IMG/VR virus record: IMGVR_UViG_3300036772_000271
Span: 1 to 64,000 of that record
Source: a virus
DNA length: 64,000 nucleotides
Direction: 5' to 3' (one strand)
The translations under genes were made by a program, and so were the position numbers. The notes beneath the pieces are model-generated. The model was not told the origin of the DNA, did not search any database, and saw nothing but the letters and a program-made list of their open reading frames with translations. Positions within the stretch are counted from its first letter, which is position 1. The number at the start of each line of letters is the position of its first letter. Of this stretch, positions 18,082-23,190 are shown piece by piece.

Positions 18082-18096
18082 GTTACTAAAGGTAGC
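18082..18096. promoter_or_regulatory. Operator palindrome GTTACTAAAGGTAGC
   Basis: Copy of the dispersed palindrome with one core mismatch (ACT for ACC) but extended flanks: GTTGC before it and GCAAC after it pair with each other, so symmetry covers about 25 bp. Sense centre TTT. It controls the 18053-14.9 kb small-gene run. Confidence 0.7.
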
Positions 18097-18255
18097 GCAA
18101 CGAGCGGCGGAATGGGGCGCTCGACCAACGAATCGTCAACACGAATTTGTGGTGCTTGCGGTAACGCAACGACGAGGCGCAGCGCACCGCGGCAACCCAC
18201 GGTCTGCGCGGCACGAGGACCTGTCTCCCGGCCAGCAGCAGCGGTCTCCAGCCGA

Positions 18256-18275: not shown

Positions 18276-18360
18276 AAGCAACTCCCGGGCCGATGTCGCT
18301 GCACGCGGCGCGAGACTGTCTACAGCCGCGTCAGGCAGCCGGTCGGCGGCCCCCGTGGCC

Positions 18361-18406
18361 GGAGGGCTTTCAAGACCGTCGCATTCAACCGCTCTGCCAC
18401 CCCTCC
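18361..18406 (-). other. tRNA-Ser(UGA) 5'-half segment; putative att core
   Basis: Read on the minus strand from 18406, the sequence has acceptor strand GGAGGGG, a D arm with AGCGGTTGAA, and the anticodon loop CTTGAAA (anticodon UGA), all in register with a bacterial tRNA-Ser. It then switches to GCCCTCCGGCCA instead of the 3' anticodon stem, variable arm and T arm. CCCTCC can pair with the 5' GGAGGG. It therefore cannot be a functional tRNA, but about 39 nt are shared with a tRNA-Ser gene, the expected form of an att core next to an integrase. Confidence 0.65.
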
Positions 18407-18436
18407 AAGTCCCGCGCACGCTGGGCGAATCGCCGG

Positions 18437-19861
18437 TCACTGGTCCGGCTCGATATCGATGCGCTGCACGGTCACTGGACGGCCGTAGCGTTGCACACCC
18501 GGCGGCGTTACCTCTGGTAGCACGCCATGGTCGTGCTGCCACGACTCAAGGCCGGCCAGCATGTCCGCTACCAGCGGTAGCGCAACCCCAGGGTCCTCGT
18601 CGTCCAGCGCGGCACGCAGGCGCCGCCACGCCACGGCGACCTCCGACGGCGCGTCTGGGCCGCTGTCGAGGAACGCGTCGAGCATCCGGCCGGCTTCTTC
18701 CTCCGCCCCGGGGAACAGGTGGCCGTACCGGTCGTACGTCTGCTGAATCGACGCGTGGCCAAGCATCTGCTGCACCGTCTTCGGATTGAAGATGCCGGCC
18801 GCCGCAGTCGCCGCGATCATCAAGCTCGCGAACGTGTGCCGGCCAGCGTGCAGCGTGATCGGCGCGACACCAGCGAGCGCCCACGCCCGCGACGCGCGCC
18901 CGGCGAGAGCCTCGTCAGAGAACGGCTGGTCACGCGCCGCGTTTCGACAATGCCCACCAAGCGACGCCCGGGCGAACACGAGACCGCGGCCGCGGCCGGC
19001 GCGCTGCCGATGCTCAAGCAGGATGTCGCGGAGCACCCCGGCGATCGGAACCTTGCGGTCCTGGCCAGCAGCGGTCTTCACGTCCACCGTCTGGCCGCTG
19101 ACCGGGTCGTAGCTTCGCTGCACCCGGATCACGCCGGCAGCCAGGTCAACATCCGACCACCGCAGAGCCATCAGCTCGCCGCGGCGCAGCCCAGCGTAGA
19201 TCGCGGTCGCCCACACCGGCCGGTCACGGTCCTCGAGCGCGCCCAGGAGACGCGGGATCTCTGCCGGTGTCGCGAATCGCAGCCGGCGTCCCGAGCCGGC
19301 GGGCACACGCACCCCGGTCGTCGGGTTGGTCGTGACGTGCTCGAGGTCGAGTGCCTGCCGGTACACCGCGCGCAGCGGGATCACGATGTTCTTCACCGTC
19401 TGCGCCGCGAGACCCCTTGCCTGAAGCGACTGGACGTACTCGTTCAGCCGCCCGCGGGTCAGCTGGTCGAGGCGAACGCCGCCGAGCTCGTCGAACAGCT
19501 CGTTCTCCATGCACCGGCGGTAGCCGCGCAGCGTCGACGGCCGGTACGGCTTGTCGCCCCTCGCCAGCACGATGCCGTTCTCCGCAGCCAGCAGCCACGC
19601 CTCCGCAGCTTCCCGCACCGTCGGTGCGCGCCCGATCGTCCGCTCCCCACGCTCGAATGCGCGATCGGTGTCGCGCTTCCACGACCGTGCGGCCGCGAGC
19701 GTCGCGAACGTCCGCGTCAGCCGGCCACGCCTCGGCCCAGCCTGGACCTGGTACCGCGGCCGGCACGTACACACCGTGAGATCGTCGGACGTCACCGCCG
19801 GGCACGACCGGGCGTGCCGGCGCCGCACCCCTGGCGGCAGCCTGTTCTGAGCGTCGCTCAT
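18437..19861 (-). CDS. int: Tyrosine recombinase (integrase)
   Basis: 474 residues from ATG 19861. An N-terminal zinc-ribbon-like segment (HARSCPAV ... CTCRPRY) precedes a SAM-like core-binding domain (residues ~80-175) and the catalytic domain: first Arg in AGLRRGELMALRW (~224), HxxR in LHAGRH (~340-343), GHAS (~367) and the nucleophile Tyr in YDRYGHL (~380). All key residues are present. A C-terminal extension of ~90 residues, longer than usual, contains two operator palindromes in its DNA. It integrates the phage, probably at a tRNA-Ser gene (see 18361-18406). Co-transcribed with the excisionase-like gene (ATGA overlap at 19858-19861). Confidence 0.95.
   Translation of the reverse strand: MSDAQNRLPPGVRRRHARSCPAVTSDDLTVCTCRPRYQVQAGPRRGRLTRTFATLAAARSWKRDTDRAFERGERTIGRAPTVREAAEAWLLAAENGIVLARGDKPYRPSTLRGYRRCMENELFDELGGVRLDQLTRGRLNEYVQSLQARGLAAQTVKNIVIPLRAVYRQALDLEHVTTNPTTGVRVPAGSGRRLRFATPAEIPRLLGALEDRDRPVWATAIYAGLRRGELMALRWSDVDLAAGVIRVQRSYDPVSGQTVDVKTAAGQDRKVPIAGVLRDILLEHRQRAGRGRGLVFARASLGGHCRNAARDQPFSDEALAGRASRAWALAGVAPITLHAGRHTFASLMIAATAAAGIFNPKTVQQMLGHASIQQTYDRYGHLFPGAEEEAGRMLDAFLDSGPDAPSEVAVAWRRLRAALDDEDPGVALPLVADMLAGLESWQHDHGVLPEVTPPGVQRYGRPVTVQRIDIEPDQ
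18507..18521. promoter_or_regulatory. Operator palindrome GTTACCTCTGGTAGC (within int)
   Basis: Strict copy of the dispersed palindrome lying inside the 3' coding end of the integrase, about 70 bp before its stop. It pairs with a second copy 46 bp away. One of the few copies not just upstream of a gene. Confidence 0.65.
18567..18581. promoter_or_regulatory. Operator palindrome GCTACCAGCGGTAGC (within int)
   Basis: Perfect palindrome of the dispersed class, with the recurring GCAACC flank, inside the int 3' end. Together with 18507-18521 it could act as a stoperator that blocks read-through of int or toward the att region. Confidence 0.65.
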
Positions 19862-20091
19862 CGCGCGGAGGCTACGTCGCGCGGCTCATACCGTCCAGCG
19901 CGCTCCGCCGACCTGTCAAGCCACCGCTCGATCTCGCTGACCGGGTACAGCCGGCGCCGGCCGCGCCGCACGCACCGCAGCTCGCCCGACACGTGCTCGT
20001 CAAAGAAGTCCACGCTCACGCCCAGTGCCTCCGCTGACTCTGTTCGGCCCAGCGCCAGGCGCGGCGTGCTGCCCCTACCATCCGCTCGCAT
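19858..20091 (-). CDS. Excisionase-like helix-turn-helix protein
   Basis: 77 residues from ATG 20091, preceded by GGGGAAGG with suitable spacing; a GTG two codons earlier is possible. The core (ALGRTESAEALGVSVDFF ... RRGRRRLYPVSEIERWL) is the MerR/Xis-type winged HTH_17 fold used by excisionases and by small phage repressors. Its overlap with the integrase start points to a recombination directionality factor. Upstream lies a good sigma70-type promoter (20160-20187). Confidence 0.75.
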   Translation of the reverse strand: MRADGRGSTPRLALGRTESAEALGVSVDFFDEHVSGELRCVRRGRRRLYPVSEIERWLDRSAERAGRYEPRDVASAR

Positions 20092-20159
20092 ATTCACCTT
20101 CCCCTTGCCGTGAGAGGTTGCAGTCGCCCACCCATGTTTTCGGGCACTCACGGGACGCG

Positions 20160-20187
20160 AACATACAACCAACAAACGGCGTCTCAA
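20160..20187 (-). promoter_or_regulatory. Sigma70-like promoter for xis-int
   Basis: On the minus strand, -35 TTGAGA (20187-20182), a 16-bp spacer and -10 TATGTT (20165-20160) precede the excisionase-like gene by about 60 bp. The region is clearly AT-richer than its surroundings. No copy of the dispersed palindrome is present, so this promoter may be controlled separately from the rest. Confidence 0.5.
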
Positions 20188-20278
20188 CTCGTCGATCGGC
20201 AAGCCGGCGGCTGACAGTTCTCGTCCCAGCCGTCTCTACCGGCCCGGGCAGGCCACCACCCGCCGGATCCGCAGGTTC

Positions 20279-20836
20279 TTATGCAGCGATCTGCCGGCCG
20301 TCACCGGCTGGCCGGCCCATCCGTGTCTCCGCGAGCGCGAGGAACTCGCGTAGCGCGTCGTCGCCGACGTCGTGGCGGCGCAGTAGCTCTGCGAACTCGC
20401 GGAACACAAGGTGCATTTCCGTCGCCAGCCCGGGTGCCGCCGGATGGCGCGGCACCATCCCGGCTGCCCGCTCCACCTGCCACCGCAGCAGCGAATGCTC
20501 AACGAGCGTCCGCAGAGCCCCGATGCGGTTCGAGTCGTTCTCGGCCGTCACCGCGACCGTCGCGAGCTCGTCGACGCTGAACCGAACCGCGGCGAGGAGC
20601 GCGGCGAACGAGTCGCGGCCGTCAGCGTCCTCGGGTGTCGACGTTTTCCAGTCGAGCAGGATGTTCGCGATCTGGCGGGGCGTCACGCCAAACTCCGCGG
20701 CCAACCGAGCGGCCGGCACGCCGGCATGATGCGCCGCCGCGATCCGCGAGTTGCGGCGGGCACGCTCCCGCGACGTCATCCTTGGCTGGCCGGGCCGTTT
20801 GGGCGGGTCCGGACTGAAAGATTCTTTCGCGGCCAT
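20279..20836 (-). CDS. HTH DNA-binding protein; candidate phage repressor
   Basis: 185 residues from ATG 20836. Residues ~28-60 form a helix-turn-helix (AAHHAGVPAARLAAEFGVTP, then RQIANILLDWK), followed by a helical C-terminal domain (~75-185). Size and HTH position recall the 183-aa repressor of mycobacteriophage L5, though overall similarity is not claimed. The gene sits beside the integration module, and an operator palindrome ends 3 bp before its start codon with no Shine-Dalgarno, consistent with autoregulation and leaderless translation. Alternatives: small terminase or a replication-linked HTH protein. Confidence 0.7.
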   Translation of the reverse strand: MAAKESFSPDPPKRPGQPRMTSRERARRNSRIAAAHHAGVPAARLAAEFGVTPRQIANILLDWKTSTPEDADGRDSFAALLAAVRFSVDELATVAVTAENDSNRIGALRTLVEHSLLRWQVERAAGMVPRHPAAPGLATEMHLVFREFAELLRRHDVGDDALREFLALAETRMGRPAGDGRQIAA

Positions 20837-21864: not shown

Positions 21865-22040
21865 CAGACGCCTCGCTCCCACAACTCCTCCGAGATCTGC
21901 GTGAGCAAATCGACTGAGACCGCGGCTGGCTCGCCGGCGTAGACCGCGGCGACGATGTCGGCGGTGCACGTCGGGAACCCGGCGAGCCGACACGCCGCTG
22001 CCGCCTCGTCGCAAATGTCGGCCAGTTCGCTGTCGGTCAT
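21861..22040 (-). CDS. Small acidic protein
   Basis: 59 residues from ATG 22040 (MTDSELADICDEAAA). Acidic and helical with three Cys. Coupled on both sides by start/stop overlaps. Not recognisable as a toxin; function unknown. Confidence 0.6.
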   Translation of the reverse strand: MTDSELADICDEAAAACRLAGFPTCTADIVAAVYAGEPAAVSVDLLTQISEELWERGVW

Positions 22041-22987
22041 GCCGTCACGAGCCGCATCTGGCAGTCCGAGCACAGGTCGCCGCCACGAGCCGCCGTCTCG
22101 AACGGCCGCTGGCCCCACACGGCTCCTGGCAGACGCCTGCGCGTCGCCTCACGCTCAACGTCGAGGATCGTGTCCTCGAACCACTCCGGGAAGAACGTCA
22201 GCAGATCCAGGCGCTCGCCCGGCGCCGCGAACGCCCCGCAGTTGCACTCGCCGGAGCGATGCATCAGCGCAGCGACGTCCGACTCCGGCAGCCGGTGCTC
22301 GAGGCGGTAGCGGCGCATCGCCTCGTTCGTCCAGTCGATCAACGGGTTGCACCACACCTGCGCCTTCACTCGGCGATGCGGTGCCTTCTGCGTCCGGGCG
22401 CGCCGCGCCGACTCGCCGCGCCGCGTGCCGGTCAGCAGCATGATGCGGGCCAGCCGATCGCCAGGCGCAAACTCGGCCTTCGCGTCGCGCACGAGCTGCT
22501 CGACGCAGCGCTCCTTCAACCGCGTGTACGCCACCCGGTGGCCGGCCGGCCCGGGGAAGCCGTGCGGCGCGTTGCCGAGACCATCGCCCTGCGCTCGGCC
22601 GTGACGGGCACGCAAGAGGTCATTGAAGTCGCTCATCCGCGCCGTCTGGTGCCGGGCGCGCCACACCACGAACTCCGAGCCGAAGTTGTGCCACCAGTCC
22701 GGGTCGCCGAGAACCATCACGCGGAACGCGTCGCCGGCACGCAGGATCCTCAGCGGCTTGCCGAGCATCCCGGCCATGTTCTCGACGAACTCGACGACGC
22801 CGGGCAGCGCCGTGCCGGTATCGATGAACGCCAGCTCGTCGTACTCGTCGACACACCGGTGCGCCAGCACCGTCGAGTCATGGCCGCCAGAGAACAGGCA
22901 GAACGTGCGGACCGGCCGGTGCTCGGCGCGAGCCGCCGCGACCAGCGCGTCAGGGTCGGCGGCGAGGCCGGGCAGCATGTCCGTCAT
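22037..22987 (-). CDS. PAPS reductase/ATP-PPase family protein
   Basis: 316 residues from ATG 22987. The PP-loop SGGHDST (residues 33-39) marks the adenine-nucleotide alpha-hydrolase fold of PAPS reductase-like proteins. A central TRRGES and a late Cys cluster (SGECNCGAF near 254) are also typical of the phage branch. These proteins activate a substrate with ATP; phage members may act in sulfur metabolism or DNA/tRNA modification. No dnd/ssp phosphorothioation partners are present. Coupled to small genes on both sides. Confidence 0.8.
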   Translation of the reverse strand: MTDMLPGLAADPDALVAAARAEHRPVRTFCLFSGGHDSTVLAHRCVDEYDELAFIDTGTALPGVVEFVENMAGMLGKPLRILRAGDAFRVMVLGDPDWWHNFGSEFVVWRARHQTARMSDFNDLLRARHGRAQGDGLGNAPHGFPGPAGHRVAYTRLKERCVEQLVRDAKAEFAPGDRLARIMLLTGTRRGESARRARTQKAPHRRVKAQVWCNPLIDWTNEAMRRYRLEHRLPESDVAALMHRSGECNCGAFAAPGERLDLLTFFPEWFEDTILDVEREATRRRLPGAVWGQRPFETAARGGDLCSDCQMRLVTA

Positions 22988-23190
22988 CTCGCCGGCACCT
23001 CCTGCTCCCACCGCTGCTGATGCGAATGCTTCAACGACACGGGCTTGCCCATCCCGACCCGCACGCACGGCCGCCCCTTCGGCATCCCGCACCGCGGGCA
23101 GTCGCGCCGCTCGTGCGCGGTACGGATCAACTCGTTCGCCGCCGCGGCGGCCGCCAGCAGACGCTGCTCAGTTGCCGACGCGGCGCTCAC
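22984..23190 (-). CDS. Small zinc-finger protein
   Basis: 68 residues from GTG 23190 (VSAASATEQRLLAAA). An N-terminal helix precedes CPRCGMPKGRPC and a His pair (LKHSHQQRW), a likely Cys3-His zinc site. Similar mini-zinc-fingers of the form CPxCGxxxGxxC are very common in actinophages. Function unknown. Confidence 0.7.
   Translation of the reverse strand: MSAASATEQRLLAAAAAANELIRTAHERRDCPRCGMPKGRPCVRVGMGKPVSLKHSHQQRWEQEVPAR

What the first reader, a model, noticed from the sequence alone, without database searches (positions are those of the whole stretch)
18361..18406. tRNA-Ser 5' half in the att region, the reverse of the usual arrangement
About 39 nt match a tRNA-Ser(UGA) from the acceptor 5' strand through the anticodon loop, then jump to a CCCTCCGGCCA-like acceptor 3' strand. 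Integrases that use tRNA genes normally carry the 3' half and restore the gene end. Carrying the 5' half means an integrated phage would have to supply the tRNA promoter, or the segment is a mini-tRNA relic left by recombination.
Basis: partly seen in the sequence, partly recalled or inferred. Interest (0 to 1): 0.7.

Follow-up and report, generated by a model that had tools for sequence, protein, structure and literature searches.

The report
Phage attachment site carrying tRNA-Ser front half
A soil phage that probably infects Thermoleophilia (Actinomycetota) carries, just behind its integrase gene, an exact copy of the front half of the host's serine-tRNA gene; it most likely inserts in the middle of that gene and supplies a new front half and its transcription, a real but already documented minority variant of the common trick of hiding in tRNA genes.

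Summary
On the minus strand, 18406 to 18368 is a 39/39 match to tRNA-Ser(UGA), from its first base to the last base of the anticodon loop, starting 30 nt after the stop codon of a tyrosine integrase (18437-19861, -). Both flanks are phage genes, so this is an attP, not a prophage end. Exact hosts include five Thermoleophilia genomes, and integrase relatives (up to 50% identity over 84% of the protein) occur in 88 of 399 genomes of that class. Relatives with mapped sites insert into tRNA-Ser or tRNA-Cys in the usual 3'-half mode (lysogens L202, L206), with homology starting at tRNA nt 24-25. That places the crossover in the anticodon arm/loop and makes this phage a reversed exception within its clade. 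Eleven further viral contigs (about nine distinct elements) carry the same kind of orphan 5' half; one (L057) shows it next to host serS. The 5' mode is known: 159 of 3919 Islander islands, and pTN3-like archaeal integrases. The most likely mechanism is integration that places a complete tRNA-Ser gene behind xis-int, transcribed by the phage. The 'CCCTCCGGCCA' acceptor-like piece is only suggestive (P=0.0025). No lysogen of this phage was found, so its attL/attR remain unseen.

The parts
18368..18406 (-). tRNA-Ser(UGA) 5' half: nt 1-39, acceptor 5' strand, D arm, 5' anticodon stem, anticodon loop; the attP core with its gene-restoring extension
   Evidence: 39/39 identity to tRNA-Ser(UGA) of 11 genomes
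18368..18374 (-). CTTGAAA, the anticodon loop; inferred 7-bp strand-exchange overlap
   Evidence: Homology in this attP ends here; homology in 3'-mode relatives starts at tRNA nt 24-25, so the crossover of this clade lies between; position of the overlap inferred from known anticodon-loop integrases
18356..18367 (-). GCCCTCCGGCCA, phage arm next to the loop; 7-nt resemblance to an acceptor 3' strand, can pair GGAGGG/CCCTCC with the start of the half
   Evidence: P=0.0025; MFE -23.1 kcal/mol, z -2.4
18407..18436 (-). 30-nt spacer between the integrase stop codon and tRNA base 1; no terminator-like or promoter-like site found
18437..19861 (-). tyrosine integrase, 474 aa
   Evidence: PF00589 E=2.3e-19; homologues up to 50% identity in Thermoleophilia
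19858..20202 (-). excisionase-like HTH_17 protein (candidate directionality factor), overlapping the integrase start; the true start codon is probably downstream of the listed TTG
   Evidence: PF12728 E=7.4e-7
20160..20187 (-). promoter-like TTGAGA-16-TATGTT upstream of the xis-int-tRNA half run
   Evidence: only hit in 18300-20400, 0.0 expected in shuffles; consensus match only
18082..18097 (.). dyad GTTACTAAAGGTAGCG of the dispersed 16-bp family, left of attP
18507..18522 (.). dyad of the dispersed family, inside the int 3' end
18567..18582 (.). dyad of the dispersed family, inside the int 3' end

Best explanation
The 39-nt segment is the attP core of a temperate, contractile-tailed phage that integrates into the tRNA-Ser(UGA) gene of a Thermoleophilia host by tyrosine-integrase crossover in the anticodon loop. 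Because the homology runs to the 5' end of the gene, integration joins the phage-borne 5' half to the host 3' half on the integrase side. This restores a complete tRNA-Ser(UGA) directly behind xis-int, and the original host 5' half with the host promoter is left displaced at the other prophage end. The restored gene must then be transcribed by the phage, most simply by read-through from the xis-int unit with RNase P making the 5' end, or by a local promoter not recognised here. Shown: the sequence identity and its exact ends, position and orientation next to int, phage genes on both sides, integrase relatives that use the anticodon-loop region of tRNA-Ser/Cys genes, and other phages with the same half. 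Inferred: the integration event itself, strand-exchange positions and the transcription source.
For: 39/39 match from the exact gene start to the loop end. The integrase stops 30 nt upstream in the same direction. Flanks are phage: terminase, tail sheath, baseplate, endolysin. Integrase homologues occur in 88/399 Thermoleophilia-class genomes, and the nearest (L142) is in the same order as an exact-tRNA host. Lysogen L202 has intact tRNA-Ser(UGA), a 100% identical displaced fragment nt 24-91 and int between them; L206 has the same with tRNA-Cys nt 25-74. Orphan 5' halves ending at or just after the loop occur in 11 other viral contigs, four of them with int ending 35-98 nt upstream in the same direction (L058, L098, L110, L137). 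L057 shows a host-side displaced 5' half right after seryl-tRNA synthetase. The in-silico product of attP and host attB is an unchanged tRNA-Ser.
Against: No lysogen of this phage or of a close relative in 5' mode was found among the Thermoleophilia genomes scanned, and the host is inferred, not observed. No promoter-like site lies between int and the half. Two dyads of a dispersed, operator-like family lie inside the int 3' end; if they bind a repressor that blocks elongation, read-through into the tRNA in a lysogen would be hampered.
Confidence: 0.85

Rival explanations
1. Relic: an inherited or captured tRNA-Ser gene with an internal deletion (loop joined to the acceptor 3' strand), no longer used for integration.
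For: GCCCTCCGGCCA follows the loop (P=0.0025 for a 7-nt run); L065, an orphan half with no tyrosine integrase found within the 14.6 kb held, is followed by TCTCCGCCA, exactly the last nine bases of such a tRNA (P about 0.0003).
Against: The half has no mutation in 39 nt and sits in the standard attP position next to int; eight of ten distinct orphan halves lack the acceptor-like run; the Thermoleophilia tRNA-Ser genes seen mostly do not encode CCA.
Confidence: 0.07
2. tRNA-dependent lysogeny: integration destroys the host tRNA and the phage supplies its own whole tRNA.
For: Known in actinobacteriophages with tyrosine integrases (PMC10865867).
Against: No tRNA gene in the 69-kb record, and the shared core is 39 nt reaching the gene end, not about 10 bp.
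Confidence: 0.02
3. The segment is the displaced host 5' half at a prophage end (attL), so the record is a prophage with host DNA on one side.
For: Such ends exist in the same scan (L057, L056).
Against: Phage genes lie on both sides (terminase and tail fibre to the left; int, exonuclease, baseplate, sheath, endolysin to the right); the half is in the interior (18 of 69 kb).
Confidence: 0.03
4. The half is expressed as a regulatory or decoy RNA (tRNA-half mimic or mini-tRNA) that acts on host translation or tRNA processing.
For: The junction RNA folds somewhat better than shuffles (-23.1 kcal/mol, z -2.4).
Against: No promoter predicted, no conserved structure across the other orphan halves, and attP function explains position and ends.
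Confidence: 0.03

Closest known systems
Islands and prophages with a 5' tDNA fragment, anticodon-loop attP (Islander; Williams 2002 as cited in PMC8371274)
   Same: attP carries the 5' half ending at the anticodon loop; the host gene would be restored with phage 5' sequence; the displaced piece is a 5' fragment
   Different: Here seen only as an attP in an uncultivated phage; junctions not observed; closest integrase kin use the 3' mode
pTN3-like archaeal integrases
   Same: 41-bp core covering the tRNA 5' half; restored tRNA separated from its own promoter and expressed from the integrase promoter (PMC8371274, PMC5495485)
   Different: Bacterial phage; attP lies 30 nt behind int, not inside it, so integration does not split the integrase gene
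3'-mode prophages of Thermoleophilia with related integrases (L202, L206, L210, L148, L149, L155)
   Same: Integrase 42-48% identical over the matched part, tRNA-Ser or tRNA-Cys targets, homology limit at the anticodon stem
   Different: They carry/displace the 3' half and keep the host promoter
tRNA-dependent lysogeny (Fionnbharth, Gaia)
   Same: Tyrosine integrase and tRNA attB in actinobacterial hosts; inverted attP orientation also reported (Omega, Gaia; PMC10865867)
   Different: They have short cores and a phage-encoded whole tRNA; neither is present here

Membership tests
tRNA-targeting tyrosine integrase / attP | Phage_integrase catalytic domain encoded next to the att site | tested here: met
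   PF00589 E=2.3e-19, 30 nt away
tRNA-targeting tyrosine integrase / attP | att core identical to one end of a host tRNA gene | tested here: met
   39/39 with tRNA-Ser(UGA) nt 1-39 in 11 genomes
tRNA-targeting tyrosine integrase / attP | restored tRNA at one junction and displaced fragment at the other in a lysogen | tested here: inconclusive
   No lysogen of this phage found; shown for 3'-mode relatives L202/L206; host-side displaced 5' half seen in L057
5'-fragment (reversed) integration mode | core runs from tRNA 5' end to the anticodon loop, and no 3' half is present | tested here: met
5'-fragment (reversed) integration mode | restored tRNA transcribed from an element promoter | not testable with these tools
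   Orientation behind xis-int fits; expression cannot be tested
pTN3-like integrase | attP inside the integrase gene, split on integration; archaeal host | tested here: not met
   attP is 30 nt past the stop codon; bacterial host kin
tRNA-dependent lysogeny | phage-encoded complete tRNA of the same isotype and a core of about 10 bp | tested here: not met
   no tRNA in 69 kb; 39-nt core

The most novel reading that the evidence does not exclude
Phages of this kind place an essential host tRNA under control of the xis-int unit, so lysogen viability depends on phage transcription, while the displaced host 5' half, joined to a phage-borne acceptor-like strand (window, L065), makes a mini-tRNA-like transcript from the host promoter with a role of its own.
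Probability: 0.07. Interest if true: 0.65.

Novelty: new member of a known kind. Interest (0 to 1): 0.33.

Why it matters
It is a clear case of the minority integration mode in which the element, not the host, must drive an essential tRNA. It sits in an integrase clade whose other mapped members use the normal mode, so the switch can be studied between relatives. A rough count suggests the mode is not rare at tRNA-Ser(UGA) in viral contigs: 11 orphan 5' halves (about nine distinct) among 119 stretches matching a 5' pattern, against 17 orphan 3' halves among 117 matches to a 3' pattern. For comparison Islander lists 159 of 3919 (4%).

Tried and rejected
Exact-peptide searches with the whole integrase or terminase found no relatives in viral or genome contigs; the six-frame scan of Thermoleophilia did. 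A scan for orphan 5' halves in 399 genomes allowed one mismatch, which let intact tRNAs through; the listing, which appears ordered by mismatches, shows no zero-mismatch row, so it is only weak negative evidence. L217 was called an intact tRNA-Met behind int, but its 5' part does not look like tRNA and a second 3' fragment follows, so it was not counted as 5' mode. L107 is a tRNA cut by the end of the held stretch, not an orphan. The GGTARCGCAAC repeats round attP were first taken for Int arm sites, but the motif is dispersed through the phage genome, so they are more likely operators. Rfam finds nothing at the site. A tree of 37 integrases places the window next to L142 and L098 (5' mode) beside 3'-mode integrases with good support, suggesting more than one switch, but many long branches make it rough. 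Williams 2002 is not held and was read only through citing papers.

Full report
On the minus strand positions 18406 to 18368 read GGAGGGGTGGCAGAGCGGTTGAATGCGACGGTCTTGAAA, then GCCCTCCGGCCAC. The 39 nt are identical to the start of intact tRNA-Ser(UGA) genes in 11 genomes, five of them Solirubrobacterales or Thermoleophilaceae. Identity begins at base 1 of the gene and ends with the anticodon loop. No whole tRNA exists in the 69-kb record and the half occurs once.

The setting is an attP. A tyrosine integrase (18437-19861, -; PF00589) ends 30 nt before tRNA base 1 and reads towards it; an excisionase-like HTH_17 gene overlaps the integrase start. Left of the site lie terminase and tail-fibre-like genes; to the right are further phage genes (exonuclease, baseplate, sheath, endolysin). 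The site is therefore inside a phage genome and is not the displaced host half of a prophage end.

The host class is Thermoleophilia. The integrase has relatives at up to 50% identity over most of its length in 88 of 399 genomes of that class, and its nearest relative (L142, genome G231) is in the same order as genome G002, which carries the exact tRNA.

Relatives show where this clade recombines. In L202 an intact tRNA-Ser(UGA) and a 100% identical displaced fragment (nt 24-91) bracket an element of about 15 kb with int beside the fragment; in L206 tRNA-Cys nt 25-74 does the same; L210 has tRNA-Ser(CGA) nt 25-89. These are normal 3'-mode insertions whose homology starts at the anticodon stem. 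The window's homology ends at the loop. Taken together the crossover lies in the anticodon stem/loop, as in class-A sites of Islander (PMC4383910), and the window phage has its homology extended on the opposite side. In L148, L149 and L155 the integrase faces the 3' end of tRNA-Ser, so both tRNA orientations relative to int occur in the clade.

The 5' half is not unique. A degenerate scan of viral contigs found 11 further orphan tRNA-Ser(UGA) 5' halves, about nine distinct elements, all ending within five bases of the loop. The scan pattern itself demanded the 5' end, so the exact 5' start in these is by construction; for the window it is an observation. Each half occurs once in its record. 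In L058, L098, L110 and L137 a tyrosine integrase ends 35-98 nt upstream of the half in the same direction, as in the window. L057 shows the other product: seryl-tRNA synthetase, then a lone 5' half, then phage-like genes; L056 has a transglycosylase gene on its outer side, which looks like host but is less certain. A matching scan for 3' halves gave 17 orphans in 117.

Mechanism. Recombination between this attP and a host tRNA-Ser(UGA) joins the phage 5' half to the host 3' half; the sequence of the tRNA is unchanged. The new gene sits behind xis-int and is cut off from the host promoter, so phage transcription must feed it. No terminator-like or promoter-like site lies between int and the half; one promoter-like site lies at the head of the xis-int run. 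L058 has a 10-of-12 promoter match between int and the half, though about one such site is expected by chance in that stretch. The source of transcription is thus inferred. The same solution, tRNA expressed from the integrase promoter, is described for pTN3-like archaeal integrases and called seldom met in bacteria (PMC8371274; PMC5495485).

The acceptor-like piece. The 7-nt run CCCTCCG has a background probability of 0.0025 in this window, and L065 has a 9-nt run with about 0.0003; the other eight distinct elements show nothing. This was noticed before it was tested, so the probabilities overstate the case. It could be a trace of how such sites arise (internal deletion of a whole tRNA gene) or chance. 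L065 has no tyrosine integrase in the held 14.6 kb, which suits a relic there.

Novelty. The kind is known: 159 of 3919 Islander islands have 5' fragments. New here are the member, its host class, its position as an exception within a clade of normal-mode integrases, and the hint that the mode may be commoner at tRNA-Ser(UGA) in viral contigs than in chromosomal islands. The last point rests on two unequal patterns and truncated lists.

Limits. No lysogen, no expression data, host inferred; sister-level integrases are only 50% identical; the integrase tree has long branches and an unsettled bootstrap.

Noticed in passing
window 3939, 6404, 13099, 18082, 18507, 18567, 20840, 25461, 26327, 28694, 31703, 37404, 39547, 39832, 44206, 55262, 58246, 62078: A 16-bp dyad GYTACY-NNN-GGTARCG occurs at about 18 places (29 strand matches, 0.2 expected), several 10-22 nt from predicted gene starts and many in short intergenic gaps: looks like a dispersed, stoperator-like operator family of a phage repressor.
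   Followed up: partly
window 22037-23092 (-): Phosphoadenosine phosphosulfate reductase-like gene (PHROG 424), a frequent auxiliary or DNA-modification-related phage gene.
   Followed up: no
L065 12496-12544 (-): Orphan tRNA-Ser 5' half followed after one base by TCTCCGCCA, the last nine bases of such a tRNA: an apparent tRNA-Ser with its middle deleted, in a phage contig, without a tyrosine integrase in the held stretch.
   Followed up: partly
L205 (G281:C101): 5.8-kb contig with two similar tRNA-Ser(CGA)-like 3' pieces about 4.5 kb apart with a related integrase between: possibly a very small integrated element.
   Followed up: no
L206 (G126:C1 about 1166790-1170424): Element of only about 3.6 kb between intact tRNA-Cys and its 3' fragment, with a related integrase: a mini-island.
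   Followed up: no
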